Source: Paulownia fortunei
Lineage: Eukaryota; Streptophyta; Magnoliopsida; Lamiales; Paulowniaceae
Assembly: GCA_019321725.1 (NCBI GenBank)
Contig: CM033112.1
Coordinates: 24,086,509 to 24,150,508 of the forward strand
Direction: 5' to 3'
DNA: 64,000 bases
Each line of letters starts with the position of its first letter. Within the stretch, counting starts at the first letter, position 1. The notes beneath the pieces were generated by a model, which searched no databases, was not told the origin of the DNA, and worked only from the letters and a program-made list of their open reading frames with translations. A program made the position numbers and the translations under genes. Below, piece after piece: positions 4,750 through 62,530 of the stretch.

Positions 4750-5770
4750 GCTGCCGTTCGCACAAGAAAGAAAAAAAGAAAAAGATTAATTCTATTTTAT
4801 CTTATCTATTCTTATTAATCGTTTTATCTATTATATTTTTTCAATTGTCTTATTTTACTATTTATACTCTTATACTGTCTTAATTTATCCATTATATTCT
4901 TGTTTTATCACTTTGTCCCTATATTTTTAAAAAATAATCAAATTGTCGTCACTTAATATTTAAAGTAAATTTTTTTAAAATGTTGTAAATTAAGAAACTT
5001 GCATTTATATTTATATAATTTTTTTAAACTTAATTAATTAAGACTTAATATAACATTAAATTTGATTTTTAAAATTTTATTATACTTAAATTTAATAACT
5101 ATTTTTATTTTAATATTGTTCCTATTAAATTTCTATAGGGTAGAATATATTTTATTAACTATTACATTTTACCTATAAATTTTCTACTCACAATAAATAT
5201 AAATGATATAATTATTTTCTAGATAATATTTTATTAAATACATAAATATTAGTAAATAAATTTCTTGATTTATCAAAATTTCATAGAACAATGATAAATA
5301 AATACAAAGACATTTTAGGTTTAATTTGCTACTATTAAATCAACTACAAATAGTCGAATTATTGCAATTTAATATACAGTACTTTAAATATTAAACAAAA
5401 TATAGTCATTTGAGTATTGACTATTTTTGAGTTTAAAATAAGTTTTATGAACTTACGATAATTCTATTGATAATAAAAAATTTATTAGTAATATATCACG
5501 TATGTAATAAAATATTATTTAGAAATATATTAGATGTTTTTTAAATTTATGATGAGTAAGAAATTTATAATTAAAGTGTATTAGTTAATAATAAATATCA
5601 TACTATATAGTAAATTAATAAAAATTATACTAAACTAAAAAATAACCATTATAATTTAAGTACAATAAAAATTTAAATAAATTTAATATAAAGTATTAAT
5701 TAATCAAATTGAAAAAATTATTAGAACATGTATACAAATACATAAATATGAAAATATTTTAAAAATAACT
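4750..5770. other. AT-rich intergenic DNA
   Basis: Very AT-rich, no ORF of note, nothing recognised. Confidence 0.5.
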
Positions 5771-13800: not shown

Positions 13801-14385
13801 ATTGGGAATGATGTAGGGATGTTGCAGTCAACGAGGACTTGGTTATCTAATCAGTTTTCCATGAAGGACTTGGGAGATGCATCTTTTATCCTAGGGATAA
13901 AGATCTATAGAGATAGATTCAGAAGGATGATCGGACTATCCCAGTCCATGTACATAGACAAAGTGCTAAAAAGGTTTAGCATGGAGGAATCCAAGAGAGG
14001 ATTTCTGCCTATGAATCATGAGGTTTCACTCTCTAAAGTTATGTCTCCTAAGACACCTGAAGAGAGAGAAAAGATGGCTCGCATACCTTATGCTTCTGTA
14101 ATAGGGAGCATAATGTATGCAATGTTATGTACAAGGCCTGATATAGCACATGCTCTGAGTGTCATGAGCAGATATCAGTCCAATCCAGGAGAAGAACACT
14201 GGAAAGCCGTTAAGATGATCCTCAAGTACTTGAGAAGGACTAAGGATATTTTTCTGATATACGGCAATGGAAAACTAAAACTGGAGGGATATACAGACTC
14301 TAGTTTTCAGTCCGATATAGATGACTCAAAGTCCATGTCCGGATACATATTCACCTACAACAACCGGAGTGCACGAAAGGTATAA
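10868..14385 (+). pseudogene. copia gag-pol reading frame with two stops and one frameshift
   Basis: Starts at ATG 10868. A TAG at 10934-10936 replaces what is normally a tryptophan codon in the early Gag segment (FVD-stop-LRNLK). The frame is then open to a TAA at 12542-12544, just after the integrase GGEYLS motif, where the family has glutamate. It continues in the same frame to about 13297, where one base appears lost, and resumes in the next frame to 14385. Visible motifs: zinc knuckle CHYCGKPGHWKRNC (about 11620-11661), protease WVLDTGCGSHI (about 11737), integrase HHCC ending in CESCLKGK, TDDFSRYGYVYLL (about 12388-12425), reverse transcriptase [11 protein letters not shown] (about 13780) and an RNase H start ending SMSGYIF (about 14332-14350). 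It cannot encode a full polyprotein. Confidence 0.93.
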
Positions 14386-27100: not shown

Positions 27101-30100
27101 GAAGGACATAAATGGTCCAAGATGAAACTTTTCAATAGCTTATTAATCTTGAGTAATGGGTGTTAGTTGGAACATGTAATCTGCCAATTGCTAGCCTTCA
27201 CTGTAGTTTATTATGTTGACTCGTTTCAGTGGATTCTTGGTTAATTAAATTTACTTCAGGACCAGGTTTCTCTGTACTTATTTCTGCTGTTTCTGTAGTA
27301 GGAGACCCTTTAACACATATTTGTTTCTTGTTTCAGATGACATGTATCCGTCTGCTTGAAGTCATGCCTGTTGTTTTTGAAAGGCTTCCAGAAAATTCTG
27401 GCATAATGTTGGAAACTTTTGACAGCATAAAGTGGCTTCATGATTTGGCTGATTGGGGAAAGTCATCACTTGCTGTCGTGGTTAGATATTGGAAACAAAC
27501 ATTGTCTTATTTGCTTGGTCAAATTAAAGCGTCCTGCAGTAATAAATCTGCTTCAGCAATTAGTGATATTGAGAAACTTATTTCATATGGTGAGCTTTTC
27601 AATTTACCCATGATCTGTTTTTATTCTCCACAGTGTCAATTAAAAATCGCTGCCTGCATATAATGTTTGATCTTTGGTTGGAGTGCAGAAAAAGTTTCAA
27701 TGGATGAAGTGAGCAAGCAAGTAGCACGCCTTTCTGTTTCATTAACAGATGAAGGTTCTGCATTGATCAGGAGAAACTTTTCAGCAGAATCTGAAATTTT
27801 GGTAGTTGATGAAGCAAAAGTGAGTATTCTACATTCTGAACCATTAATGGACCTGGAGGGAGGCCATGTCATAATTCTTTCTGATGATGAGAAAGAACCA
27901 GAGGTTTCTGCCCATATGGGGCTCTCTAATAGTTGGTCAAGTGAAAGTACATATGTTGATAATCATGCTGGTACAAGTGCTGCTGGAGGAGAGCTAAAAG
28001 CAGACCTGAAGGAAAAAGATGTTAGCACCCATGGTGGTCTGATGGTCTCCCCTGAGGCTTGTCCTCGACTGGGTTCTTATTCTAATGATATTGTTATTGA
28101 GAAAATGAGCTCAGATACTAATGCAGGCATACAAACATCTCAATCCCCAGTTCAAGCAGAGCTATCAGAAAATAAGAGAAAGGAAACTGAAACAAAAGAT
28201 GGTGTAAAGGACAATTCAAATTTGACGGAGATATCTGATCGAACTGTCAATTCCAAACAAGTCTATTCATTTGCGTCTCAACTCTATTCCAGTAACACGC
28301 CCTCTGATATAAATCTGACTTCTGCAAGCAATGTCGTGAATAAACCTCTAAAAACTAGTGATGAAGTCGTAAAAGAGATAGTATGTGATACTGATGATGA
28401 TGAGTGGAAGTTTTCTTTTTTCAAACCACCAAGACGTCACCAGCCACTAATTACAAAGCCAAGCACTTCTGGCCCTAAACGGCAAGTCATCCAGCTTACC
28501 CTACCTCTGGAGAACAGACCTGGCTCTATGAGGCTGGGTGGTGGAGTGAAAAGATTTCAGCCCCCTAGGCTTGATGACTGGTATAGACCCATCCTAGAGT
28601 TGGATTTCTTTGTCGCTGTTGGATTAGCTTCTGGAACTGACAAAGACTATCAAAGTGTTGGCAAATTAAAGGAAGTCCCTGTTTGTTTCCAATCACCTGA
28701 TGGGTATGTTGAAATTTTCCGGCCCTTGGTACTGGAAGAATTCAAAGCGCAATTGCAGAGTTCTTATCAGGAGATGGCTTCTGCTGAAGAAATGTGTTGT
28801 GGAAGTTTATCTGTGCTGTCAGTTGAGAGAATTGATGATTTCCATGTTGTGCGCTTTGTCCACGACGAAAATGAGTCCACTGGATCTAAAAGCCTGTTGG
28901 AAAATGATCTCATTTTACTTACCAGACAACCTCTGCGGAATTCTGTCAGTGATGTTCACACTGTTGGAAAGGTATCCTATATTTGAATATCGTGATATGT
29001 AATAACTTTGGTTCTTGAGTTGACTTGTATGACCTGAGTGGTTACCTAATTTAGGAGACAGAAAACAAAGGGTACAGTTGCCATTTCACTAACTTCATGG
29101 TCAAACTTTTCTTCAAGAATTCATTTCCGGGGGTAAATTTAGTTACAGAAGTTAATTAAGCCAATTCAACTCAGCAAGCCATAGTTATGTGGGTCGGCTA
29201 TATGAATGTCTTCTTTTGCTCTGTCAATGGCCATCTCTAGATGTTACTGGAATTCTTCTTTTTATGAAAATCAATTTATGTCTTCTTTGTTATGAAAATC
29301 AATTTGATGTTATTAGTTACAGAAGTTACTATGCTGACAAAATGTTGTTTACATGCATATGTCATTTCATTGTTATTCTTAAGAGGTTGCTGAAATTCTT
29401 TTTTTTTTTTTTTCCGTTGTGCTAACTGACGACACAGTTTTTTGGTATATGGATGATCTAATTGGTATTTTACCACTGTCCATCCTTTTGTTTTATTATC
29501 AGTTGGGGGATTATGTAGTTTGTAATTTGTGATTAAGTAGTATTGGTAATTTTTCTTGATGCTTAAGGTCTGTGGATAGATAAATTATGAACTTGACCAA
29601 TTTTCCCAAAATGTATTGTTCCATTGTTCAGTCTGCATTTTGCTGATGCTTTGTGTCTGTTCATAGGTTGAGAGGCGCGAGAAAGACAATAAAAGAAGGT
29701 TGAATATCTTAGCCATCAGACTGTATCTTCAAGGATGTTCTCGTCTTAATCGAGCTAGAAAGCTTCTTACTGAGCGAAGCAAGTGGTATGTTAGTCGTAT
29801 TATGAGCATTACCCCTCAACTTCGAGAATTCCAGGCATTGTCATCAATAAAGGAAATCCCTTTGCTTCAAATCATCTTGAACCCTGTCAATCATCCTTGT
29901 GGTCAATATGAATCGAAAACTGAAAATCTTAGTAAACTATCTCAACCTTTGCAGCAGATTTTTAAGTCATCATACAATGGCAGTCAGTTGCAGGCTATTA
30001 GTCTTGCTATTGGTCCGTTTGACTTGAAGAAGGATTTTGACTTGACTCTCATACAGGGACCTCCAGGTGTGTTGTTTTTATTTGCTTGCCTTTTTTATTT

Positions 30101-33100
30101 TCATTTTTGTGTGCTCTGGTTTCTTATGTATTTATCAATTACTCATATTTATATTCTGTGAGCGTACTTTTGCGCCAGGAACTGGAAAGACCAGAACAAT
30201 TGTGGCCATTGTTAGTGGTTTGCTTGCTTTTTCTCAAATGAAGGATTCCAAAAGATTAAGAAATGGTGGATCAGTGTGTAGCAATAGCTCTAGCGCTAAC
30301 CAAAGGATCAGTCAGTCTGCTGCAATTGCGAGGGCCTGGCAGGATGCAGCACTGGCTAGACAATTAAATGAGGACACCGAAAATAACAACAAATCTGCAG
30401 GAAGCTGCACTAGAGGCCGGATTCTCCTTTGTGCTCAATCCAATGCTGCAGTTGATGAGCTAGTTGCAAGAATATCCAGTGAAGGTCTTTATGGCTGCGA
30501 TGGACAGACGTATAAGCCATATCTTGTGAGGGTTGGTAATGCAAAGACAGTCCATCCAAATTCTCTACCCTTCTTTATTGATACACTTGTTGAAAATCGT
30601 CTAGGGGAGGAAAAGAGGAATGCACATGATGAAAAAAAGAGTGGGACTTGTGCAGACTCTTTAACCATAATACGTACTAATCTAGAGAAGTTAGTGGACC
30701 GCATAAGATATTATGAAGCCAAGAGGGCTAGCTTGGAGGAAGGAAATTCTGACTCTAAAACTATAGCAAAAGGAGATTGTGGAGATGCCAAGGTATTGTC
30801 TGATGCTGAACTAAAAGAAAAGCTAAGGCAGTTATATGAAAAGAAGAAAGCAATATATACAGATCTTGCCAATGTTCAGGCAAGAGAGAAGAAAGCCAGT
30901 GAAGAAATCAGAGCCCTAAGACACAAATTTCGAACTGCCATCTTGAAGGAGGCTGAAATTGTGGTGACTACACTAAGTGGCTGTGGTGGAGATCTATATG
31001 GGGTGTGCTCTGAATCTATATCAGGCCATAAATTCATTAATGCATCTGAAAATACTCTATTTGATGCTGTTGTGATTGATGAAGCGGCTCAAGTACTTTC
31101 TTTTCCCCTTCTTGTCTTATCCTTATTCTCTCTGTTGATTTGCTTTTTCAATTGTCATGAATCCTCGTGCATCTTTCTTTTTCTGCCTTTTGATACTGTG
31201 TTCTATTTTACTTTTTACCCAAGGCCCTGGAACCTGCCACTTTGATTCCATTTCAGCTCCTAAAATCGAGGGGAACCAAATGTATCATGGTAAGCAGTTG
31301 ATCAAGCATTTGCTTCATTTTTGTTTTCAAGAATGCTCGGTATCATTTACACGGGGATTTTTTTTGTAAGGTTGGTGATCCAAAACAGCTTCCTGCCACA
31401 GTTCTCTCTAATGTTGCCAGCAAATACTTGTTTCAATGCAGCATGTTTGAAAGATTGCAGAGGGCAGGTCATCCTGTAATCATGCTCACCCAACAGGTAG
31501 TCTGAATATCCAAGTTGTTTCTTAATGAGAAAAATTCCTCCCTTTTTTCCACTTTTTAACTTAAAGGACCATTAATCTGACTCTAAGCATATGAACGTAC
31601 TTATTTTAGTTCTATAGCCAGCAGGTCTTGTGATTTTTGATTGATTTTTATCCAACAGATAAATCTGACTATTTTTAATGTCTTTAATAGTCTCTTCTAT
31701 TATTCATTCTCCCTGCTTATGAATTCATCTTTGGCTTAGTAGATTTGTGACTCAGCATGGCAAATAGTGGCTGTAAAATGGTTCTTATACCTCTTTGCTT
31801 AAATAGTTTACGGAGCATCTTGAAATGATTTTGGAAATTTTCCTCCCACAGTTCCTTGCACTTTTCGATGTGTTTTGGTCTACAAGAATGGAGTAGTTTT
31901 ATTACCTGGCGAGGCCTTCAACTCCACCACTTTCTTTTGCTTGGCAGATATTGTTTGAGATAGATAGTTGGAACTGATGTGAAAGTCAGGACATTGTGGT
32001 AGTTTTAAGAACTTTTCCTTAAGTTTGTATATTTTGGTTATTACTGGTAATAGGATATGTACTAGAAAAGCTATTTTAGCTTGAAATATGTGGAAGCGAA
32101 AATGTTTCAAAAGAAGTGCTTCAGTGTCTCTTTGATTAGTTAGAGTGCCAACAGACAAACTATTGGTGTAATAGGTTCCAGTACAAGGGACATGAAACTC
32201 AATTCAAGAATCAGTATGTCGCACAAATATGTGCTTTCTTCAACTTTGTCATTACAATGCTACACGAAAGGAATTAAAGATACACATGTTTCAATCTTTT
32301 GTTTTCTGCATAATCATTAAACATAAAAAGGTTAAATGGAAAAGAATAACTGTTTAGTTGATCATGAGAGGAGAGGAGCAAAAGGTTTGGTTGAGCTTGC
32401 AGTTAAAGATGAGGAGACTCCATTTGAAAATTTTCTTTCTGGTAACAGCGGTTCAAACTATTGAAACTTCGTAATGGTTATGAAATTGTCAGATATAAAT
32501 TTTTAATATGTATTCTGATCATTAAAAAGATGGCAGAGATCAAAGCTGCCAATCCATTAAGGAGTCTGCTAATATTTTAAAGATAAAATGCAAAGTTCTG
32601 GTGTTGGTGGAAAGATCAATGTTTCTTTTGAATTGCTATAGTATAAAACATTGACCTGTAAAAGCCTCTTGTTTTGATGGCTGTTGTATTATTTTATTCG
32701 CGTATTAGTACAAACTTCATATGCATTTTATGGTTGCAAGCTGCACCTATACATCTCATGTCGAAAATGTAGATAGAAATACCTTAAGTGGATTTGATTG
32801 CTTGCAATTTAACAACCTCTATTTCAGGAGCATTGAGCTTGAAGATATAGCCATTTCATACAAAGCCTGCTATGTACAATCTACCTTCGAACACTTGAAT
32901 TTTTGAGATGAAATTAATGAACAAAGTTTGTCTTAGATAAAGTATTAAAGTCTGTTATTTAGTTGTATCTTTTTTTCCTATCATTTCTGCCTTGTTCTGT
33001 TACTGCTAGAATTACTTGTCTTTCAGTATTAAACAAATAATCAAAGTATTCATGAAATTACCAGTATAGGATGCATCCAGAGATATGCCATTTTCCTTCT

Positions 33101-34609
33101 TCACATTTCTATGAGGGCAAGTTGCTGAATGGAGATCAGATGTCTGGAAAAGCTGCATCCTTCCATCAGACTCGGTGCCTTGGGCCATATGTATTTTTTG
33201 ATATTATTGACGGGCAGGAGCTTCGTGGTAAGAACGCAGCGTCGTTGTCCCTGTACAATGAGTCTGAGGCTGATGCTGCAGTTGAAGTGTTACGATTTTT
33301 TAAGAAGAGGTACTTAATCCATCATCTCTGTGATTTTTTTTGGTCAACCACTTTTATGATTAAGACAGTTGTATTTGACAGTTATCCCTCTGAATTTTTG
33401 GGCGGAAGAATTGGCATCATAACTCCTTATAAGCGTCAATTATCGCTGTTACGTTCACGATTCTCGAGTGCATTTGGGTCTTCTATCACAGCTGACATGG
33501 AATTTAATACAGTTGATGGTTTTCAAGGTCGAGAAGTTGATATCCTGCTACTTTCTACTGTTCGAGCATCAGGATCCTGCTCTGAAATACCCAGGGTTAG
33601 CTCTAGCAATCTTGGATTTGTGGCTGACGTGAGACGGATGAATGTTGCTTTGACTAGGGCCAAACTCTCTCTGTGGATTTTTGGTAATGCAAGAACATTA
33701 CAGACAAACCAGAGCTGGGCAGCTCTTGTAGAAGATGCAAAACAAAGGAATTTGATTGTATTGGGAAGAAAGCCGTACAGTTCGATATGTAAGTTCGGTT
33801 TGGAAAACAGACCAAGTTCACGAAATTCCTCAAATATTCAGCTGGAGGAAGTTGAAAGGGTCAAAGCTGTAAGTGAATGTGTGAATACACAGAAGAAGAT
33901 TGTGAATCATTCTTCTGAAAGGAAGATAAAATACATTGGTACTGTACTGGAAAGTGTCAGTACAGGTGAAGATATTTCTCCTTCAGCGAAGGATGGCGCT
34001 AAAGATGACAAAAAAAGAGCTAGAGATGGAACAAAATTTTCAGTGATGGAGGAGGTTGCATCTGTTGTAAATCCAAATAGTGATAACAAAGTATTGAATG
34101 GTGCAATGTCAAATGTGGAAGAAAATCAAGAGAAAACTGATAAAAGCTGGGCCTATAGGGATAATGACAAGCAAATTAATGTGGTAAAAGCTGATGTTGG
34201 AAAGGGAAACGATAATTACAATATAAGGAGACATTCAGCTAACACTGGAAAGGCGAAGAGTAGAAGTCAGAAACACCTGAGACCTGTAGCCGATGAAATG
34301 CGTTCAAAAACTATTAAGCATGATAGGCCACTGGAGGTGAAAATTGCCACATCGTCTTCTGAGAGAAGCTTCAAGGAGAAGGGTGAACAAGGAGCTTCTA
34401 ATCAAGTTGAAATACTTAGAGATTCAATCATGAAAAGGAAACAGCAGCGAGAAGCCGTTGATGCTCTCCTGTCGTCAGCTCTTATATCTTCAAAGAAGTC
34501 AGAATCTTTGGTGAAATCATCTGTGAAGAGGACTCTTTCAAAAACAAATTCCAGTGGTCATCCGTCAGACCCCAGAAACGAAGAAATGGTTAGGTCATCC
34601 TTCTCGTAG
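19290..34609 (+). CDS. SEN1/senataxin-type superfamily 1 RNA/DNA helicase
   Basis: 21 exons, 2342 codons by my model: 19290-19423, 19798-20182, 21686-21802, 21925-22007, 23908-24054, 24142-24290, 24372-24502, 24635-24757, 24851-24924, 25086-25676, 25807-25918, 26033-26170, 26595-26924, 27337-27589, 27689-28971, 29667-30066, 30179-31092, 31224-31289, 31371-31496, 33065-33309, 33382-34609. Every junction keeps phase. The N-terminal 1300 residues form a helical SEN1-type region (WCGYWDLMGPLLETFYNY near the start). The helicase core has Walker A GPPGTGKT split by intron 16 (about residue 1480), CAQSNAAVDEL, Walker B DEAAQ (1784-1788), GDPKQLPATV (1812), YRMHPEI (1853), VDGFQGREVD and RRMNVALTRAK. 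A lysine/serine-rich tail follows. Sen1 helicases resolve R-loops and end transcription in the nucleus. Length and layout match a long Arabidopsis homologue, At1g16800 as I recall. The C-terminus could differ if a donor at 34589 is used. Confidence 0.92.
21098..21134. repeat. (TTA)n microsatellite in helicase intron 2
   Basis: About twelve TTA/ATT units in the 1.5-kb second intron (20183-21685), which otherwise shows nothing recognisable. Confidence 0.95.
22008..23907 (+). other. Long helicase intron 4 (1.9 kb)
   Basis: Phase and protein continuity join exon 4 directly to exon 5, so this whole stretch is intron. It contains a 30-bp imperfect direct repeat at about 23204 and 23241 (TTGGTTGATTTAGGATGTTT) and a CT run near 23602-23616. 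No exon or element was found. Confidence 0.75.
24503..24634 (+). other. Probable GC-AG intron of the helicase gene
   Basis: The exon before it ends TTTCTGCAG and the intron starts GCATGT. The acceptor is TTCCAG at 24634. The nearest GT donor, four bases on, would bring a TGA into frame at once. The GC donor keeps phase 0 and joins the family sequence PFLQ to SLEALQDGEH. Confidence 0.75.
31497..33064 (+). other. Long helicase intron 19 (1.6 kb)
   Basis: Lies between the exon ending MLTQQ and the one starting YRMHPEI, two adjacent helicase motifs. No coding sequence or named element is visible inside. Confidence 0.75.
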
Positions 34610-37960: not shown

Positions 37961-38018
37961 GTTGACTCAGGGAGATAAGACACACACAAAAGGAATCTCT
38001 CCACTTGGTTTTCTCTCT

Positions 38019-38026
38019 ATATATAT
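38019..38026 (+). promoter_or_regulatory. TATA box of SAUR gene 1
   Basis: TATATATATG lies about 120 bases upstream of the ATG at 38146, after a pyrimidine-rich TTTCTCTC stretch. Spacing fits an intronless SAUR with a short leader. Confidence 0.5.
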
Positions 38027-38145
38027 GCATCATTTTCCATTTGCCCACTTCGTGCAAACTGCAATCATTTCTGCGGAAGCTCTCTTTTCTTTCATTTCCA
38101 CTACCTGCAGGTCCCTGCACACACACACGCACATTCATCATATAT

Positions 38146-38685
38146 ATGGATTCATCAAGAAAGTCTAACAAGATAAGAGATATAGTTAGGCTTCAACAGA
38201 TCCTCAAGAAGTGGAAGAAGCTTGCCAACAACAACAGGACCACTTCAAGTACTAGCAGCAGCAAGAGCATTAAGTTTCTGAAGAAAACACTCTCCTTCTC
38301 GGAAAGCTCGTCGTCAGCATTGGCAAACGCTGTACCAAAAGGGTACGTTGCGGTGTGTGTAGGGAAAGAACTGAAGAGGTTTGTGATCCCAACAGAGTAT
38401 CTGAGGCACCAAGTGTTTGGGATTCTACTGAGAGAAGCTGAAGAAGAATTTGGTTTCCAACAAGAAGGGGTGCTTAAGTTTCCATGTGAAGTGGATTTGT
38501 TTGAGAAGATATTGAAGATGATGGAAGACAAGGGATCATCATCATCACCATCATCATTGCTGTTGCAGGATGAGGAGGAGTTTGGATGCGTGGGGGATCA
38601 TGACTTCATCATCACCTGCGCTAATAACTACTCACCAGATACTGAGCTAACCCCATCCCATCACCACCCTCAGATGTGCAGATGA
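38146..38685 (+). CDS. SAUR family auxin-responsive protein
   Basis: An intronless 179-residue frame. The start at 38146 begins MDSSRKSNKIRDIVRLQQIL, a usual SAUR N-terminus with a basic amphipathic helix; an upstream in-frame ATG at 38005 would add an unlikely leader. The SAUR domain covers about residues 62-125: VPKGYVAVCVGKELKRFVIP, then LRHQVFGILLREAEEEFGF and QEGVLKFPCEV. Small auxin-up RNA proteins inhibit PP2C-D phosphatases and so promote plasma-membrane proton pumping and cell expansion. The acidic, serine-rich tail (SSSSPSSLLLQDEEEFG) is longer than usual. It converges with a second SAUR 1.5 kb downstream. I cannot assign a family number. Confidence 0.92.
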   Translation: MDSSRKSNKIRDIVRLQQILKKWKKLANNNRTTSSTSSSKSIKFLKKTLSFSESSSSALANAVPKGYVAVCVGKELKRFVIPTEYLRHQVFGILLREAEEEFGFQQEGVLKFPCEVDLFEKILKMMEDKGSSSSPSSLLLQDEEEFGCVGDHDFIITCANNYSPDTELTPSHHHPQMCR

Positions 38686-41624: not shown

Positions 41625-44600
41625 TCATCGTGAATATTTGTCTACCAGTACCTTTGCTTTATCAGGTGCAAAGAAATGTGCCTGTTCACATCCATGACCA
41701 GTTATAGTTGTAGCCTATACATTTTATATCAAGAATTGTGTTAAGAACTTTTGGATATAATTTAAGGACCTAGGAGGTAACTATCACATTGGGACAGAGG
41801 GAGAATACCAGTAGAACACAATCTGCATTTTAAACACTATCAAAACTCTTATGCCACGACTAACATAGAGAATGATAAGAAATAATTTTCAGGGGGTCTG
41901 AGTAGCAGTGCTTTTATTCTGTCTCTCCGGAGACATTCACTTTACTGCGAGTATCTTTCTTAGGGCTCGTTTGCTAGGCTTGATGACATAAGGAGGGATA
42001 GATTAGATGTGTTGTGAAGATGGCATATCAACACTATCCTATTTCATGTTTGTTAGAGTTTATGAATGAGCTTGATACCCATGAGATAATAATAAGCATT
42101 GTTTGGTTGGAGATATATATTGTAAGAATACATTATGAAAAGTCAATTTTACCCTTCAAAATTAAACATATATTAATATTTATTTATGAATGTAAACATA
42201 TACTTTTATTATTTATATATATTATAAATAACATACATTTACAGTATGTATATTTTCAATTTATATAAATTATATTATTTATATCGTCAAATAAATATAT
42301 ATTTCTAAGTATACATATTTTAAATTAATTGCATAATTATTTAATATAAATAATAATAATATATTTATTAATATCAATAATATATATTATTAATATACAT
42401 AAAAATATAAACAAATATAATGAAATATATTATATAATATGCATATAAACATATATTTGTATTATTTATAAAAACATATTGCTTATAAAATATATTTATA
42501 TTATTTATACAAATATATTACCTATAATATAAATATTATTATTTATGATACACTATTAATTTTAATATTGTAAATGTTAATATATAGTATTAATAGTATT
42601 TATATTATTCATATTATTTACAAGATTATTTATATATTTATGTATATTATGTATAATATATATTTATTGATATTATATTATTTATATACAAATACAAATA
42701 TATATTTGTAAGCATACATATTTTATATTATTTAGATAAATATATAGTTATATATATGTATTGATATTTATAATATTTTATAATATAATATTGATATCTT
42801 ATTACTAATATTCTATATATTATATTATTATTAATATAAATATTAATAATATAAAAATATATAAATAAACATAATTAAATATATTTATGATATATATAAA
42901 CATGTAATTTATATTATTTATATAAATATATTACTTATAATATTATTATAGATATAAATATGTATTATTTATGATATATTAATATTAATATTGTAAACAT
43001 GTTAATATATATTATTGAAATCACTTATATTATTTATATTAATTATATATTTATTTATATTGTTCATGTATATAAATAAAAATATATATTTCTAAGTATA
43101 CAATATTTTATATTTTTAAATAAAAATATATTTATATGTTTATTATTAATATTTTATAATATATTATTCATATTTATATTGCTAATATTATCAATATTAC
43201 ACTATTATTAAAATTAATTTTAATAATATCTATATTATATAAATAAATATAATTATACATATTTACAAAATATATATAAACATAGATTTGTATTATTTAT
43301 ATAAATATATTACTTATAATTAAGTATAAATTATGATATAATATTAATATTAATATTACATACAGGGCCGAGACTATGTGGGAAAACCCATCAATCCAAT
43401 CCATATCCTACCTAGCAAACAAGCTCTTTTAGTGCAAAAATGCATTCAAATTCTGTATCGTTTATCCACAAGATAAAGTCCATTAAACAAGTGCCGGGCT
43501 CAAAAGCAAACATAGTGTAAGAGTTGCCCACTAGCGATGTGGTTGCCACAGTAGGTATGGCGACAATTCTATTACTACATTCTTATTATCATATTTAATT
43601 GCACTGCTTCTCAGTTCTGAATCAGGATTCTGGACAAGTGATGACCATCCTACCAATGAAGAAGAAAACCTTCTTGGGGGCTCTCAAAACATTTAACATT
43701 TCAACTTCACACCTATTCTTAATTCAATCCTCTACTTTAGGATAATCAATTAAAAGGAGTTGTATGGTGAACATGGGCACTTAAATGCAATATAGCCGCA
43801 AATGGAGATTTACATTTGCAGGTTACTATGAGTTATCAGGACAAAAGTCACCATGATACACAAACAAAATGTGAGACCCACAGTATTGAAGATAGACCTA
43901 GACCTAGATTATGATCTTCAAATGTTTTAGATTCTTATGTTATCTACGATGAATCGAAGAGCAAAGGTGTTATTAATGACTCATTGAGGCCCCCAGTTTA
44001 AGAATTTTTTATACATCATGAAACAAATATACGCCAAATACTATAGATAGAAACAACACTACCATGAGTAAATGTGAGAGAAGCAACGGGACGGGCACAA
44101 AATTAATATAAAGAACTTTGGTTGAAAGTTTGAACCTTGCTCTGAATGGTTTCCCCATAACTTGAAAATATCTTTCCCAAGAAGATAAGCAAAGGCAAGA
44201 CAGTCAACTGTCTTTTGCTATTGTTCTCTCACACAGATAGAAGGTGAAAGGGATTAACATTAATGCTCTAACCTGTATAAACATTCTCTCCGCATCACCT
44301 ATACTTCCATTCTCTTTCAAGATAATTCCCTGCAGAAATGATAATTCCACTGTTAGTGGGCGCCTATGTTTTACAACAACCAGCTGCAGGGTCCTCTATA
44401 ATTAACAGACGCTAGTAGGTATACGGGAACAAATCAATAGGGTTCATAGTAGTGCATAAACGACTGCAGGAAAATGTATTTGCCTCAGGCAGGCATCAGG
44501 ATAATTCTGCGCAGCATTCATTCAACTTAGGCACTTTAGCCAATTTTTATATAATTTCAATCCTGCATTTATTTCTTTTTGAGAAATATTCAGAGTCTCA

Positions 44601-53179: not shown

Positions 53180-56128
53180 TTAAACAGCGGAAATTGATTT
53201 GCAGATTCTTGCGGCTGCCTTGTTCATCTGCTCTACCGTAATCCTGGCATTACACATGTTAGCAAATGCTCACATGTATTTCATTCCATACCTCGACAAA
53301 GATCCACAATGCTCCTCGTATGTCTTTACCTGTAAGCAAAGAATAAAAGAAAGATATCAAGACACCAGTTGCTAGAAATATGGCTTGTTCAGTTCTGTTA
53401 TATTAGTTAACTGAGCTTATTAAATTTATATATTATCGAAATCCATCAATTGCTAGCAATCGTATAGTGTCCAGGCAGTCCCAAAACCAAATTCCATAGT
53501 GCAACATGCTTTTGAAAACAAATAAAACATATATTGAAGGAGGATTTAACTTACAAATGTCTTAAGGCAGCTCCAGTCATCCACAAGGGGCTGTCCTCCT
53601 GGTCGGACAGTGTGCAACATTGCAATGCCACGTTTAGCTCCGAAAAAAAATTTACTTATTTGCTTTACTTTATTATCTACAAGCATCCTGCTACTGATCT
53701 CATTGAGTAACTGCTTCTGAGCTTCCACCCTCCTTATAGAATCTTTTGGGGCTTTGTAGAACTGGGGGAAGGAAAAGAGGATCCAAAACATGGAAAAATT
53801 ATGATAAGAAGGATGGTGATAGTTAGCAATTTCTTACAATCAACTTTGATACTAAATTATAGTGGATAATCAACAAGGTAAATGAAGTAACCTTCTGCTG
53901 ATAATGGAGGAGGTCTGCTTCCCGCTGGCTTACAGCTTTTACTGCTGATGGGGCAGCACTATGTTTGCTCCAAGTATAATTATCATTCAGTGTACTTGTA
54001 CCCAAATAAGTGTATAAAAGTTCCCTACTAAGCACCGGACTACCATACTGCATAACATGGGAACCAAGATCTGAATTTTCTACTGCTGTCCTCCGTCTAA
54101 CCTGTGCCAATCAGACTAAATCATATCATGATCTGAACGAGAGAGGGGATTTAAAATGAGTTTATACAGATTCATCTCCATTCATGGACGACATTACCAA
54201 TTGAAGCTGCTGCCCCAGAGTTTCAGACCGTAAATCATGTTTTTCACTGCATAATAGAAGTTGGAAGTAGTGAAAGCAACAAAAGAGCCGAAAATATTCA
54301 GAGTGCATAGTGTGATGCATGTGACAGCTCATTTTATCATCAGTAAATGTGTAAAACTGCATGTATCTACAAACCTGCTGCAAAGAGAGAGATTATACCT
54401 GTCTTCCATCCAAGAAACACTGTACACATCCCCCAAACAAACGTCATAAGCTGGAGAAATATAAGGATAGTCATCAGGACAATATGTAGCAAAACTGTCC
54501 TCTGTTGCATTCGCTGCTGTGATTGCATAAATATTTATAGTTTCTGGAAGAAGACCCTCGAATATACTCCCGGATTCACAGGCTTCAAGGTAAAATACCT
54601 ACGTCATATGTAGTGACGAGATCATTAGTATGAGGGTTTCATTTCACTAATAAAACACAGAGCTAATGCAGGCTCAAAATACTGACCATGCTTCCATATG
54701 AAATGCCTTCATGCTTTGTCTTCAGGACATTGATGAGATCATCAGCATAAACGTATTCATCAGAAGGCATCGCTGTTGCAACACGGTGACATGGATCAGA
54801 GGCATTTATCTACTCATTAAGCAAGATAAAAGATGAAAACACTTTTTTCAAATGGTCTATTCAGCCACACCAAGTTGTGCTGCTTTCTGGTTCTTTAACA
54901 TGTATGTTCAAGAAGAATTATATTTAAATAAGATGGGATTCAGATGGGTTGCATAGAAGCTCTTGTATGATCCTTGGAGCACATACGAAAAGGTGACGCG
55001 GATTCAGTAAACTGAATGCTTCCCTTGGGATGAAAATAGTGGCGATGGCTAAAGAACTTATTTTGGGACAGACATGGTGGATGGGACAAAGAGGACAAGT
55101 TAGATAAGAGATTCAACTGGAAATGAAAAGGATTAAAGAAGGAAGGCGTGAAGGGAAGAATAAATCCCACAAAGAAAAAGAGATTGCAGACTTGCCCTTT
55201 CTTTTTTTTTTTTCATTTTCTTTTCTGTGGCTAACCATGGATAGCAGAACATTTTTGAGGTTTGTTAAGCATTTGGTGTGTTTTTTCTGAAGTATCTTCT
55301 TACATGTGTTGGGATAACACTGTTTATTTGCTAATAGTTAACTTTGCAGAATTGACAGAGATCAAGAAAACTCAACACGATATGTAGTTTTTGAAATACT
55401 AACCAACCACTCCAGGACTTCCGTGATCGCTATAGAAAATGAATATATGGTCTTTGGGACCACTATCCAGAACCTTTCCGCTAACTCCTGTGAGAGCACT
55501 TCTATTCCCAAGTATAACAGCAAAAAGGTTTTGGACATTGGCATTCTTTCCAGTATAATCCTGAAGCATATTAAGTTTACATATCAAAAATGCGGTAATC
55601 AACTGAGGCTACAAATACCTCTAATCTGAATTCAACATTTAATTCTAACATGACCTTGGGAACTCCTTCATAGACATTATCACCACTTGGACTATTAATA
55701 ATAACACCAGGCCTAGGATTGTATGCGCCAAATGCTATATCATCATACATGAACACTATGATGTTTTCTTCTTCCAATCCACCTTTCTTAAGTATTTGAA
55801 AGGCGTGGCATACGTCAGCCTGAAACATCATCGTAACAGAACACTTGAAAAGCTGGTTACTGGTATATAAGAATATTCTGTGAACCAGTAAAAATATTTA
55901 GCTTTACACCTGATGCCTATAGTTTTCATAACCACGCGAGCCTGCAACCAACAGTGCCCATCTCGTACCCTCTATGTTATGGGGATTGCCAGTTGGTCCA
56001 GCCTCTCTCTGAAGGAATTTTGATATCTTCGCTGACAAACTTGGAGGATCGTGATCAAGCTGCTGACTAGTGATAGAAGAATCCAGTAGTTCGAGGAAGA
56101 GAAGTGCTCCAAGAATGTGTCGAATCAT
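53180..56128 (-). CDS. Vacuolar processing enzyme (legumain, C13), delta-VPE-like, with premature stop
   Basis: Nine exons: 56128-55910, 55819-55655, 55560-55404, 54772-54687, 54598-54399, 54246-54198, 54101-53892, 53761-53555, 53329-53180. A signal peptide ([20 protein letters not shown]) precedes the propeptide. The C13 protease domain starts at [20 protein letters not shown]. Catalytic His174 is in YSDHGSPG and Cys216 in YLEACESGS, so the dyad is complete. VPEs cleave after Asn/Asp in the vacuole, maturing seed proteins and executing cell death. SPG after the HG is unusual (mostly GPG or APG). The C-terminal prodomain reaches [10 protein letters not shown], then TGA at 53270-53272; 29 more family-like codons ([20 protein letters not shown] and onward) follow in frame to TAA at 53180. 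As it stands the protein has 450 residues instead of 480. Neighbourhood and divergence suggest delta-VPE (At3g20210). Confidence 0.9.
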
Positions 56129-57480
56129 CGCAACTCTGGAAAACTTGATATTTTAGTTGCTGCTGCAGAGAAAATGATGAAATGAGTTGCTAATGGCTTA
56201 AAATAGTAGCTATAATGCTCAGGCCCCCAAAACCTGATCAGAGTCCTAATCACTTTGAAATCCGTTACGAAGTGATGAAATCAACTAAATCATCAAAACT
56301 ATACAATGGCATTTGTTTGAGAGCTGATGTAAGATGTAGGCGTCAAACTTTATTAACTAATTTACAAATGCATCAAATATAAATATCTGTTGCCAAATTT
56401 CTCAATTTCCAGCAGCGAAAGATTTCCCGGAACTATACTTTGTTCAATTTCACATCAAATTACATCAATTAGTTATCTACAGCATTCCCAGAAGTTAAAT
56501 GAATTACAGTATCTTATGGAGGAAATGAACAAAATGCACTGAGGATGAAAAAAGTTACAAAAAAAAAAAACATGGAGAAATCTTCTGACTAAAGCACCGC
56601 TAAAGGTATCATTACAATGACCATAGAAGTCTAACTAGAGGCCTCCCAGATAGCCATCCAATGGGTTGAATTCATACCTTTATTAACCTAGAAATAGGAA
56701 GGCATGAAGACTCAAAGGTACTTCCAAATGTTCACAAGATCTCCCAGCTCAAAGAGATTTTCAAATCTTCTTCTTGTTCTTAAAAAACTGATTTACTCGC
56801 AGCTGCAGTGATCAACTACTCCTTATTGTAGGAAATCTGATGATGATAAATGTACCCGAAAATCAAAGCTGAAGGTGAATAAAAGGATCCAATCTTTAAT
56901 GCGTGTCAAATAATGACAAAGCAATGGATAAGCAAGTCATAATTACAAAATGAAAACATCTCATGTCAATTTAAGGTCAACCTGGCCTCATCTAATGTTT
57001 AGCATAGATGTATCAAGTTGATAAATTTTGATTGCATAAACAAAATGGAAAAAACCTGCAAAGAAATGCTAGGTACCGGTAGGTAGAAAAGAAGAAAAGT
57101 GGAGAAGTACTGAAAAGCTATCTGCAAAAGAACTTGAGAGATCATTCTGCAATAATTTTAGGACACAATCAAAAGTTGTGATCAGAATAAACCTCTCGGT
57201 TTCTGCTTTTTGCCAAGGCTTGAAATTAGTTGGGCATATATAATTAAGAAGGAATTTGTGTTATAGCCGCAATGCGAGGGAATCTCAACCTGCCTTAGTC
57301 TCTTTAATGTATGAAAAGCAACTTAGTCGTCGTTTCTTCAACCTTCTGATCGATGATGGTGTGAAACTAGTTTTGGGACTTTCACTCCGTCGTGAAGAGC
57401 TAGCGGGCAGATTAACGCCATTGTTTCTCTTCTTTCTTCAAAAAATAACTTCCTCTTTCTTCAGATGGTTGAGATCTGAT
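56129..57480. other. Promoter of the VPE gene and intergenic DNA
   Basis: No gene recognised with confidence. Two short stretches at 57250-57480 (minus) have serine/arginine-rich open frames that might belong to the weak gene candidate to the right. Confidence 0.4.
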
Positions 57481-58441: not shown

Positions 58442-58910
58442 ACTTTATTCTTACAAATAAGTTTTAAATACTTTGTCCTCTCATATTATGTTTATGTTTA
58501 TACCTCCAATATCTTTTCAGATCAAATTTTTATGAGAATGCACTTAATTAGTTGTTGTCGCTTGTTTTTTCCAGTCTTTTCATCAAAAACCAAGAAAAAA
58601 AAGTATTATAATATTATTTTTATTATTATCAAACGGTGATATATTTGCTCAAATAATGTCGATCGCAGTATGAAAAATATTTTAGATACCACCATTTATT
58701 GTATTTTTATCATTGATTGTAAAAAAAAAATTATTATAATATCTTTTTCTCGGCTTTTGAGTAGGAAAAAAAATGAGGGATGAGGGCAAATAAAGAGCAT
58801 TTCGGTAAAACTTTGATCTGAAAATAATATTAAGGGACAAAGTGTTATAATAAATATAAGTTGATGGGGCAAAGTGCTTAAGATTAAACAAAACGATCAA
58901 CACAAATTAT
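58440..58910. repeat. Imperfect inverted repeat of about 200 bp per arm
   Basis: The left arm (about 58445-58640) and right arm (about 58690-58905) read alike on opposite strands: both contain ACTTTGTCC, TTTTCAGATCAAA, and AAGAAAAA or GAGAAAAA followed by a run into TATTATAAT. A spacer of about 50 bp separates them. The small ORFs in the two arms are translations of the same repeat, not genes. Confidence 0.75.
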
Positions 58911-59499
58911 TGAATGAAATATTTACTCAAAACTTAAGTAATAATTAAACTAAGTGAAATTTTACTCTATATTCAAATTCATGATTGCACTAGTTTTTAT
59001 GTTGTATGACCTTAATGATTCATGTTATTTTCTTTTTATTTAGTTTCACAGAATTTTTTGTATTTTTTTTTTGAATTTTCTACTATCTCTTCTCCCTCCC
59101 TCAAAATTTAGTTATTAATCTAACATCTTCTTTTTTTTACATGATAAAAATGATAACATATATTGAAATAATGAATAAAAGAGCATTATTATTTTCTTTC
59201 ATTATTTTCTATTGTTTAGATTGAAAGTTAATTTTATGAATTTTATATAAATCAACATCAACTAAATTTTGGAAAAAATCAAGGTAAAGTTAAAATAATA
59301 AATGAAACGCATGCTCAGTAAATTCTATATATTATTAGATATATTGAACAACTGTAAACTATAAAGAACAAATTGTTGTAAAAAAGTTTTAGTTGATTTT
59401 AATAACCCAAAATGACTTCATACATATTATTAAATTTGATAATAGCATATGAATATAAAGGCAAAATTGTATTTTTATTCATGTAATTGGCTTGCTTTA

Positions 59500-61610
59500 A
59501 TGTTAGTTCAAATTTCATCACATGCCCAATATATTTGCAATTTGTAAAATTGCTGATGTACATTTTCTGTTGGTTGTTTTTATAAGGAAAATGCTAAAAT
59601 TTCTCTCCAATTCAACTTTCACATATTTTTCCTTAAAAAACATTAAAAATGAAGAAAAATTATACTTCACTTAAATGTGTAATTAATTAAGAAATCTCAT
59701 GGTTGAGATCTAACTTAGATCATACAGTCAATACAAATTTAAAAAAAAAAGCATTTCTTGTATACGTTCTAAATTTAATAAATTAATTATATTTTAAAGT
59801 TGAATTATTTTATACATGTCAGTTAAGTATTCTTTGTATGATAGACAATAATATTGGACTTTGATAAGATAAATTAATTTATTTAATTTACTATAAATAA
59901 TTTCAATAATAAATTAATTTAAGTCCTTACTGAGGCTTAAATAATTGAAAATATAATTACATATATCATAATATTTTATAATAGTTTCGGTTGATATTCA
60001 ATATTTAACCCAATTTTTGAATTATTATTATATTGTAAAGGATTGTAATATAATCTATAGAGATAAAAATATTATACGTATATAAAATTCATATTGAAAA
60101 GTTATATATAGTATATTTTCAACTTAATTTCTTCTTTATTTTCACTGCTTCTGAGGAAATTAAAATGAGTGAAAGTTTATTCGGAGGGAAACTGTGTATT
60201 TTTCCTCCAAAAATAACTAATAGATAAGTCCATAAATAATTTTACCCTCATTGCAAAAAAAAATTCCGGATTTCAGGTATCATATTTTGGGCAATCTGAT
60301 ATTTTTTGGTGAAATTTAAATTCTTTAACGAATTTTGGAGTAAACTTTTTAATATTTGAGAAATATAATATGTGAATTAACACCCATATTTTAAAGGAGT
60401 TAAAGTAAATATAGCCCATTCTTAACCAATAAAGGGCCTCTCTCTCTTATAAATATTTTTCTTTAAAAAATTTAAATTTTAATCCATATGCTTAGCTTAT
60501 AAGGTTTATTTAGGTTAAGAATGAGCCTCTTGATTTATTATGGCTTTATTTCTTTCAGGTTTATAAAAATAAACTTCATTAAGCATACAAATTAAACTTT
60601 ATTTGTTTTAAGGTTTTTTATATTTATACGAAATAGGTCCTTTATAGGTTAAGAATGGGCCTATTTTCATTTTTACTCTTTTAAAATGTAGGTTTGTTAA
60701 TTTAAAATAATATTTCTCAAATATTAATAATTTAATTCTAATTTTACCAAAAAAGTTAAGTTTTGCAGGAAAATGTCACATACCCAAAACATAACACCTG
60801 ACATTGAAGATTGTTTTGTTTTTTTTTTTCGAAATGGTGGGAGAATTATTTAGGTGGAATTATCTATTGATTATTTTTGAAGAAAAAATTCTAAATTCTC
60901 CGCCATATCAATTTTCACTCATTTTTTCCTAAAAAGCAGGAAAAATCCTAATTTTTCCCCAAATCAATTTTCACTAATTAAAATGAAGAAGAAACTGAGT
61001 TGAGATATACTACATAAAACTTTTTGATATGGGTTGTTATATATATAACATTTTTATCTCTATTAGATTACATTAATATTATTTAAATAAAATATCATAA
61101 GACATATATGTCATATCCTAACTTATTTAAGCTTAAAATCAATTATCATAAGTTAAGTAATTTAATTTATTTTAGTAAGTCCAATATTATACTTATCATA
61201 CAATAAAAACTTAAAATGATAGGTACAATATGATTCAACTTAAAATATAATTAATTTATTCTATTTAAAACCTTTTTTAATTTTTGTTGATTGTATTCTA
61301 AATAAAAATAGTGAAAAAGAAAAAAAAAACTTGACTGAAGTTGTTCAATCCAAATTTGTCTGAATCAAGAGATTTTTTTATTAGTTAAACATTTCAATGA
61401 AGATATTCTTTTTCCACTCTCATTTCTTTTTGATTTCATTTATTTTTGAGGAAAAATGTGTAAAAATTAATTTAAAGAGAAATTTTAATATGTCTCTTAT
61501 AAAAATAAATAATAGAGAAGTCCTCATCAGCAATTTGTAATGTATTTTTGAAAAAATTCCAAATTTAGGTATTATATATCAGACATGTGATGAACTTAGA
61601 CTAAATGTAT
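59500..61610. repeat. Giant imperfect palindrome (foldback), about 2.1 kb
   Basis: The left half reads, in reverse complement, along the right half with its centre near 60550. Paired landmarks include TTCATCACATG (left 59514; right near 61590), AAATTTCTCT (59593; 61480), AATATTGGACTT (59850; 61175), CAGGTATCATATTTTGGG (60276) with CAGGTGTTATGTTTTGGG (minus, near 60800), and CCCATTCTTAACC (60417; minus, near 60645). Spacing is kept throughout, with small indels, so the arms are collinear for about 1 kb each. No ORF of note. There is almost no unpaired loop. Confidence 0.85.
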
Positions 61611-62530
61611 CAAATTATAAAAAATATTATATAAAAATTGTCACCCATATTTCAAAAAATCAAAATAAAAGCTGTTTGAGATATCTAAAAATATATAAAA
61701 CTCCTTGAGCTTTCATTGATAAATTAAGTTGACAAAGAGATTATTTAATATGAAAGAAAAAAATCATTTTTTTGACAGACAATATTAAATGATAATATAT
61801 TAAAAAATTTATCAAAGAGAATATATCATTTTGACATATTAAATGATTTTATTATTTTTTTATTTATGATTTTATTAAACAGACAAAGAGAATTTTTTTT
61901 TTATGAAACCAAAAAATAGTTTAATGCAACAAGAATATAAATAATTATAATTTATAAATTAAAAATTTTACTTGATGAAAGTATTACTTAATTTTAGAAT
62001 ATTGAATAATTATATTTCTTTAAATACTTCATTTGATTGTTTTGTTTCTTCATCAATTGCAGCGTCAATATTTACTGATTTAAAGTTATATATCATTGCA
62101 AAATTGTATATTTTATAACTTCTCTCTGACAAATAAATCATTACTAAATCATTAAGGGTATAAATATTTATTTAAAGTATGACTAAAACTTTGTTGAAAG
62201 AAATGCTGAAATTAAAAATCAAAGTAAAATAATAATAAGAATCAATAAAAGATATCTTTTGTGTGATATATTATTATAACTTTTATTAGGATCATAGTTT
62301 TCAAGTACGTAATTTTCACTAGTTACAACGGAAGGAAAACTTGGTTGTGTCAATTACGTGAAAGCATATTATTAATTAATTATTGGTTCAACACAATTGG
62401 GGACTTTTAAGTTGTTGATGATGGATTGAAAAAAAGCCTAGCCAAACTAGTTACATATATGTGTACGTGATGTTAAATTACAGGTGCGCAGAGAGTATAC
62501 ATATATATGTATAGGATATGGCGGTGAAAG
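61611..62530. other. AT-rich intergenic DNA
   Basis: Nothing recognised. The right end should hold the 3' UTR of the next gene. Confidence 0.5.

What the first reader, a model, noticed from the sequence alone, without database searches (positions are those of the whole stretch)
59500..61610. Two-kilobase quasi-palindrome with collinear, diverged arms and no loop
Landmarks on the left reappear in reverse complement on the right in the same order across about 1 kb, centred near 60550. It is too long for an ordinary MITE, has no ORF, and the arms have drifted, so it is old yet still present as a foldback. If transcribed from either side it would make a long hairpin, a possible source of 21-24-nt small RNAs, as with MIRNA-like inverted-repeat loci. 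It could instead be a foldback transposon or two head-to-head copies of one element.
Basis: partly seen in the sequence, partly recalled or inferred. Interest (0 to 1): 0.75.

Follow-up and report, generated by a model that had tools for sequence, protein, structure and literature searches.

The report
Head-to-head pair of decayed Helitrons
The long mirror-image stretch is real, but it is the worn remains of two opposite-facing copies of an ordinary, non-coding plant jumping element (a Helitron), possibly one old insertion that was copied back on itself, and nothing found here shows that it does anything today.

Summary
The palindrome is real: no shuffle approached its score. It is larger than reported, 58882-62322, with a spacer of about 55 bp at the centre. 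The window's own plant genome was searchable. Both arms belong to one dispersed family of about 4.5-5 kb (173 matches from 40 scored of 462 candidates). Its terminus carries Helitron 3' marks: hairpin, CTAG, then host T. The right arm keeps CTAG-T at 62319-62323. The left arm is a second copy in the opposite direction, so the 5' sides face each other. The 'arms within arms' are a family feature. Both arms share a deletion scar not seen in that form in 27 of 27 other copies spanning the site. They stop about 63 family positions apart, with 8 bp or more of inverted microhomology. A search with the centre found no second copy of the junction. This favours fold-back inverted duplication of one insertion. 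The tree points weakly the other way (AU p = 0.037), so two neighbouring insertions remain possible. The arms have drifted like unlinked family copies, without pairing-preserving bias. A small-RNA role is physically possible but unsupported. Verdict: an ordinary transposon relic with an instructive fossil junction.

The parts
58882..60511 (-). Left arm: partial Helitron copy, sense strand minus (3' side to the left, last ~300 bp of the 3' end missing, 5' part missing)
   Evidence: nhmmer with a profile of 17 other genome copies: model 303-1995 at 58882-60433, E = 1.2e-286; 60443-60511 matches other copies by blastn, by the profile only weakly (model 2102-2175, E = 0.009)
60512..60566 (+). Single-copy spacer at the centre, part of the right arm; the left border may lie anywhere in 60480-60511
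   Evidence: Right-arm match 60634-60499 = model 2114-2241; microhomology GTTTATTT 60504-60511 / AAATAAAC 60567-60574; another copy matches 60480-60610
60567..62322 (+). Right arm: partial Helitron copy, sense strand plus, 3' terminus kept, 5' part missing
   Evidence: Model 2-446 at 62322-61921, 912-1981 at 61672-60656, 2114-2241 at 60634-60499
62319..62322 (+). Helitron 3' terminus CTAG, followed by T (62323); the hairpin upstream is degraded here
   Evidence: Coincides with the end of family homology
60414..60440 (+). Left copy of the private deletion scar
60634..60661 (-). Right copy of the same private deletion scar
59534..59662 (-). Subterminal module A, outer copy of the left arm (inverted to 60125-60257); family feature
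   Evidence: blastn 71%, E = 1.2e-8; an inverted pair at the matching place passes the 70-bit cut in 6 of 20 other copies (L012, L016, L018, L020, L025, L027)
60125..60257 (+). Subterminal module A, inner copy of the left arm
60690..60990 (-). Segment with module A, inner copy of the right arm (contains a local 39-nt direct duplication, 60885-60923 / 60941-60979)
61380..61680 (+). Segment with module A, outer copy of the right arm

Best explanation
The quasi-palindrome is a dead transposon relic: two partial copies, facing each other with their 5' sides, of one dispersed, non-coding Helitron family of this plant genome. Shown: both arms are that family; the right arm ends at a Helitron-type 3' terminus; a search with the centre found no second copy of the junction. 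Inferred (about 0.6): one Helitron inserted with its 3' end at 62322, lost its 5' half and a short internal piece, and the broken end then folded back on a short inverted microhomology and was copied, giving an inverted duplication with a spacer of about 55 bp. The arms then drifted for about as long as other copies of the family and lost different outer parts. I found no coding capacity and no sign of selection for pairing. If read through it would fold into a long imperfect hairpin; that would be a side effect.
For: Family: 173 matches from 40 scored of 462 first-look candidates; sharp common boundary in the copies. Terminus: one search showed the end of 16 of the 20 fetched copies; in the 13 whose family match reaches it (model start 6 or less), 9 keep CTRR (8 CTAG, 1 CTGA) and 7 of those 9 are followed by T; the window's right arm reads CTAG then T. 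The far end resembles TC...ACTATTAAAAG in 4 of 6 copies read by eye. No ORF of 100 aa or more in the one full copy looked at (L030). Inverted duplication: both arms carry the same scar. The 27 of 27 other copies that span the site have 37-154 nt between model 1984 and 2112 (L024/L039 and L027/L044 look like near-duplicates, so about 25 are distinct); the arms have about 11 and 21 nt (positions) with near-identical sequence. A genome search with the centre gave 50 matches from 37 of 37 candidates; outside the window none crosses the scars, and none holds both sides of the junction. The one match that runs past it by ~23 bp (C10:6279277) is an ordinary one-arm copy. Arm end points lie ~63 of ~4700 family positions apart (the left one rests on a weak hit); chance under independent breaks is about 0.03. 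Spacer plus 2-8 bp inverted microhomology is reported for fold-back inverted duplications (PMC3907307, passages). With the window as positive control, 0 of the other 20 copies have an inverted second copy of more than 263 positions of model 900-2240 within their 6-6.5 kb stretches.
Against: The tree of 22 rows does not join the two arms (0% of 200 bootstrap trees). An AU test mildly rejects them as sisters (p = 0.037), and their identity (74.7% over 802 columns) is below the family median of 76.1%. No section stands out in arm-to-arm identity (its last section, around the scar, was poorly aligned). The family shows no native inverted repeat at the junction by a shuffle test (0 of 23 scored copies). 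Only 40 of 462 candidates of the arm search were scored, so a sublineage sharing the scar could have been missed, and short matches over the scar could fall below the cut. Local inversions beside the body also occur in other copies (L013; L051), so rearrangement other than fold-back copying is possible. The hairpin before CTAG is degraded in the window copy.
Confidence: 0.85

Rival explanations
1. Two independent insertions of the same Helitron subfamily landed side by side head to head, and the region between (both 5' halves) was later deleted; the shared scar is then a sublineage trait or was copied between arms by gene conversion.
For: Arms are as different as other family copies and not sisters in the tree. 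Two head-to-head dissimilar neighbouring Helitrons, explained by consecutive insertions, are published in maize (PMC2267711, passages).
Against: Scar shared by both arms and not seen in that form in 27 of 27 other spanning copies or in the centre search; both arms end at nearly the same family position with spacer and microhomology.
Confidence: 0.35
2. A functional inverted-repeat locus: transcribed from a flank, it makes a long hairpin that Dicer-like enzymes cut into 21-24-nt small RNAs against Helitron copies or genes, like the Mu killer locus of maize.
For: Predicted hairpin energy of 59500-61610 is -611.8 kcal/mol against -354.9 (sd 9.8) in 12 shuffles; longest uninterrupted helix 21 bp; 393 of 1033 21-nt windows have at least 17 long-range pairs. 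A read-through hairpin from an inverted transposon duplication is the proposed Mu killer mechanism (PMC3440606, start of abstract in the search listing).
Against: No excess of G-U-tolerated changes for either transcript strand (44 and 57 of 252 mismatches); arms drift like other copies; longest perfect arm match 19 bp; no Rfam match at gathering threshold in the window. No expression data available.
Confidence: 0.06
3. A foldback or Mutator-like transposon with ~1-kb terminal inverted repeats that moves as a unit.
For: Long inverted arms; Mutator-like elements with multiple long TIRs exist in plants (PMC3310237, abstract and section list).
Against: No second copy of the junction was found; the family occurs as a one-arm ~5-kb unit without inverted ends; no clear excess of exact 9-bp direct repeats at the outer edges (3 observed, 1.9 expected) or at the edges of either arm (0 observed, 1.8 and 2.4 expected); Helitron terminus.
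Confidence: 0.02
4. Assembly artefact or chance pairing of AT-rich DNA.
For: Composition is 18-24% GC over 59-62 kb, and loose scoring matches other AT-rich parts of the window.
Against: Shuffles with local composition kept never reach the arm scores; arms differ by about 25%, which a misassembly would not be expected to produce.
Confidence: 0.01

Closest known systems
Non-autonomous plant Helitrons (3' hairpin + CTRR, A/T target, no target-site duplication; features as quoted in PMC2267711; absence of duplication recalled)
   Same: 3' terminus, lack of coding in the copy looked at, dispersed copies with one sharp end, no target-site duplication found
   Different: This locus holds two 5'-truncated copies facing each other; a helicase partner could not be looked for because the search did not complete
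Adjacent head-to-head Helitrons of maize (PMC2267711, passages read)
   Same: Two Helitrons head to head
   Different: There the two are dissimilar and carry different gene fragments; here they are the same family and share a private scar
Fold-back inverted duplications (PMC3907307, passages including part of the abstract)
   Same: Single-copy spacer between inverted copies, short inverted microhomology at its edge
   Different: Large human chromosome rearrangements with spacers of kilobases; here ~1.7-kb arms inside a transposon and a ~55-bp spacer
Mu killer of maize (PMC3440606, start of abstract in listing)
   Same: Inverted duplication of part of a transposon that could form a hairpin RNA
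   Different: Mu killer silences Mutator elements; here no transcript or effect is known and the arms have drifted ~25%
Mutator-like elements with multiple long TIRs (PMC3310237, abstract)
   Same: Repeated modules near an element end
   Different: No terminal inverted repeats at both ends, no target-site duplication found, Helitron terminus

Membership tests
Helitron | 3' end CTRR (CTAG) followed by host T | tested here: met
   9 of 13 copies whose match reaches the end keep CTRR, 7 of the 9 followed by T; window right arm CTAG then T (3 further copies shown there begin inside the model, 4 of the 20 were not given to it)
Helitron | Hairpin 10-15 bp upstream of the 3' end | tested here: inconclusive
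   Read by eye, e.g. L023 ACATGCAAGGCACGT, L021 TGTACAATGCACG, L022 TTTACGCACGTAAA; degraded in several copies and in the window copy; not scored statistically
Helitron | 5' end TC preceded by host A | tested here: inconclusive
   By eye: L030 and L032 fit A then TC...ACTATTAAAAG-like; L029 and L035 have TC but another preceding base; L031 and L034 unclear. The window copies lack their 5' ends
Helitron | No target-site duplication | tested here: met
   No clear excess of 8-9-bp direct repeats at outer or inner edges; a weak test at this age
Helitron | RepHel protein in autonomous relatives | not tested
   Search with PF14214 did not complete; the one full copy looked at has no ORF of 100 aa or more
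Mutator-like / foldback transposon | Terminal inverted repeats at both ends of the mobile unit | tested here: not met
   Ten extended copies: no inverted match between the two ends at E 1e-10; short internal inverted pieces only
Mutator-like / foldback transposon | 8-11-bp target-site duplication | tested here: inconclusive
   None above chance, but erosion could hide it
MIRNA-like / inverted-repeat siRNA locus | Phased or discrete 21-24-nt reads from the hairpin | not testable with these tools
   No small-RNA data
MIRNA-like / inverted-repeat siRNA locus | Arm changes biased to keep pairing | tested here: not met
   44 (plus) and 57 (minus) G-U-tolerated of 252 mismatches
Fold-back inverted duplication | Single-copy spacer and short inverted microhomology at the junction | tested here: met
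   Spacer 60512-60566, 8-bp microhomology; exact border uncertain within 60480-60511
Fold-back inverted duplication | The two arms are each other's nearest relatives | tested here: inconclusive
   Tree does not join them, AU p = 0.037; the shared private scar points the other way

The most novel reading that the evidence does not exclude
The palindrome arose during or soon after Helitron insertion, when a single-stranded Helitron end folded back and was copied, and the resulting inverted repeat acted for a time as a natural hairpin silencer of its own family, a Helitron counterpart of Mu killer.
Probability: 0.05. Interest if true: 0.6.

Novelty: new member of a known kind. Interest (0 to 1): 0.2.

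Why it matters
It explains an apparently odd foldback as a transposon relic, and it shows a readable fossil junction (spacer, microhomology, shared scar) that may record a fold-back copying event inside a Helitron. As a warning for genome reading: a family with internal inverted modules makes nested palindromes when two copies face each other.

Tried and rejected
Tried and dropped: (1) a TIR element of ~1 kb duplicated head to head. This came from the four-copy module A (quartet support 31:4:2 on 273 columns); other genome copies showed that module A is internal to a larger element. (2) Target-site duplications at outer and inner edges: no clear excess. (3) A native inverted repeat of the family as the fold-back site: 0 of 23 scored copies significant (four further copies were left out because the anchor motif was weak). 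(4) A shorter subfamily with its own 5' end near the junction: the profile match of L019 and L023 stops near there, but their end sequences share nothing visible; L010 only has an internal deletion there. (5) Host name: the protein search gave as best match an unnamed 74% relative; named plant hits lower down are scattered over many families. The host is left as an unidentified flowering plant. (6) Gene conversion limited to the centre: no rise of arm identity towards the centre (with a poorly aligned last section). (7) A first scan for second inverted copies had a filter that also hid most of the window's own right arm; it was replaced. Two rows of the tree (L012, L021) had abnormal lengths (2304 and 1313 bp); they stayed and were left out.

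Full report
Observation. The inverted repeat is real. Arms 59418-60524 and 60555-61679 align at 77% with permissive scoring (1022 aligned positions, 188 gap positions). With stringent scoring they score 310, against a shuffle maximum of 54 in 200 shuffles. In each of four sections (outer, middle, inner, core) 0 of 300 block shuffles reach the observed score in both scoring schemes, while the sequence just outside does not stand out. A second symmetry lies inside each arm: a ~130-bp module in inverted orientation at both ends of a non-symmetric middle; it is clear in the left arm and weaker in the right arm.

Family. The window's own genome is held (509 Mb, 1247 contigs; window at C8:24086509-24150508). 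It gave 173 matches to the palindrome from 40 scored of 462 candidates. I fetched 20 of these places with 6-6.5 kb each, ten extended stretches of 9.9 kb over ten of them and 501 bp of 12 further ones. The copies have one sharp end in common and extend about 4.5-5 kb with variable losses. A profile of the first 2.8 kb, from 17 copies, matches the window as follows: left arm, model 303-1995 at 58882-60433 (E = 1.2e-286); right arm, model 2-446 at 62322-61921, 912-1981 at 61672-60656, and 2114-2241 at 60634-60499. The palindrome is therefore two copies of one end of this family, facing each other, each lacking the far half of the element. The module A pair is a family trait: an inverted pair at the matching place passes the 70-bit cut in 6 of 20 other copies (L012, L016, L018, L020, L025, L027).

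What the element is. Read as a 3' end, the common terminus shows, in the better-kept copies, a short hairpin, an A/T run, CTAG and then T. One search showed 16 of the 20 fetched copies. Of the 13 whose match reaches the end, 9 keep CTRR and 7 of these are followed by T; in the other 4 of the 13 the four letters are changed. Three copies whose matches begin inside (model 36-68) were not counted, and four (L012, L013, L018, L027) were not given to the call. In the window the right arm ends there: CTAG 62319-62322, T 62323. The other end of full copies resembles the Helitron start TC...ACTATTAAAAG in 4 of 6 copies, by eye, with the host A in 2. The published features (TC, CTAG, hairpin 10-15 bp upstream, A and T flanks) are as quoted in PMC2267711 (passages). 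The one full copy looked at has no ORF of 100 aa or more (L030), so the family looks non-autonomous; a helicase partner could not be looked for (search unanswered).

How the two copies came together. For one event: both arms carry the same reduction of the stretch model 1984-2112, to about 11 and 21 nt, with nearly the same sequence (CCCATTCTTAACC.ATAAAGG.CC). The 27 other copies that span it have 37-154 nt; three of these have shorter stretches of their own (88, 61 and 37 nt) with different remaining sequence. L024/L039 and L027/L044 look like near-duplicates, so about 25 are distinct. A genome search with the centre scored all 37 of its candidates. Its 50 matches fall on the left half or the right half; outside the window none crosses the scars. 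One (C10:6279277-6279407) runs about 23 bp past the junction, to 60480. I fetched that place (L051): it is a one-arm copy that goes on to model 2774, with a small inverted piece (model 1923-2022) beside it, not a second copy of the palindrome. It does mean that the right arm may reach 60480, so the inverted homology at the junction is between 8 and about 30 bp. By the shortest reading the arms end ~63 positions apart on a ~4.7-kb element, with a 55-bp single-copy spacer and an 8-bp inverted microhomology (GTTTATTT 60504-60511, AAATAAAC 60567-60574). That is the structure reported for fold-back inverted duplications (PMC3907307, passages). Against one event: the arms are 74.7% identical, below the family median of 76.1% (70 of 231 pairs are lower). 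The left arm is nearest to L009 (80.6%), and the AU test gives p = 0.037 against the arms as sisters. The tree is star-like with few supported branches, so a duplication soon after insertion would leave little shared branch length. I put one event at about 0.6 and two insertions at about 0.35.

Function. The arms drift like other copies in the sections that could be compared, and G-U-tolerated mismatches are not in excess for either strand (44 and 57 of 252). The sequence would fold well as RNA (-611.8 against a mean of -354.9 kcal/mol in 12 shuffles), but so would any inverted repeat of this kind. No Rfam match reached threshold. No expression data exist here. The nearest gene that I recognised is a peptidase C13 (legumain type) gene on the minus strand, exons at 54.3-56.15 kb, about 2.7 kb to the left; open frames at 62.5-63.6 kb had no Pfam match.

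Verdict. A relic of a non-autonomous Helitron family; an ordinary kind of thing with an informative junction. Not evidence for a small-RNA gene. The claim that no equal case is in print is not made; searches covered foldback elements, hairpin loci and Helitron pairs only in an open-access library, and of their listings I opened three papers.

Noticed in passing
window 42001-43400: Very AT-rich island (11.8% GC in 42001-43000) that gives loose matches to the palindrome, apparently by composition alone.
   Followed up: no
L013 1344-1854 (C19, also L033); L051 883-983 (C10): Two other copies of this Helitron family carry a piece inverted relative to, and directly beside, their own body (model 73-595 in L013; model 1923-2022 in L051): local inversions may be common in this family.
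   Followed up: partly
L034 (C5), positions 1161-1995 of the reverse complement: A 418-bp tandem duplication, 99.8% identical, inside an old Helitron copy: a recent event in an old element.
   Followed up: no
window 10937-14385: Copia retrotransposon open frames: gag, zinc knuckle and integrase part in 10937-12544, reverse transcriptase in 13222-14385, in more than one frame.
   Followed up: no
window 27664-34609, 37966-38685, 54329-56152: Genes near by: Sen1-like helicase (plus), SAUR auxin-responsive protein (plus), peptidase C13 (minus).
   Followed up: no
L029 ~4990-5210, L030 ~5125-5364, L031 4651-4940: A ~70-bp tandem repeat lies near the 5' end (Helitron sense) of full copies.
   Followed up: no
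L012, L016, L017, L021, L022, L024, L025, ~1.5-3 kb beyond the arm: Seven of 20 copies hold a short inverted piece of the arm (model about 1422-1687) further along the element: another internal inverted repeat of the family.
   Followed up: no
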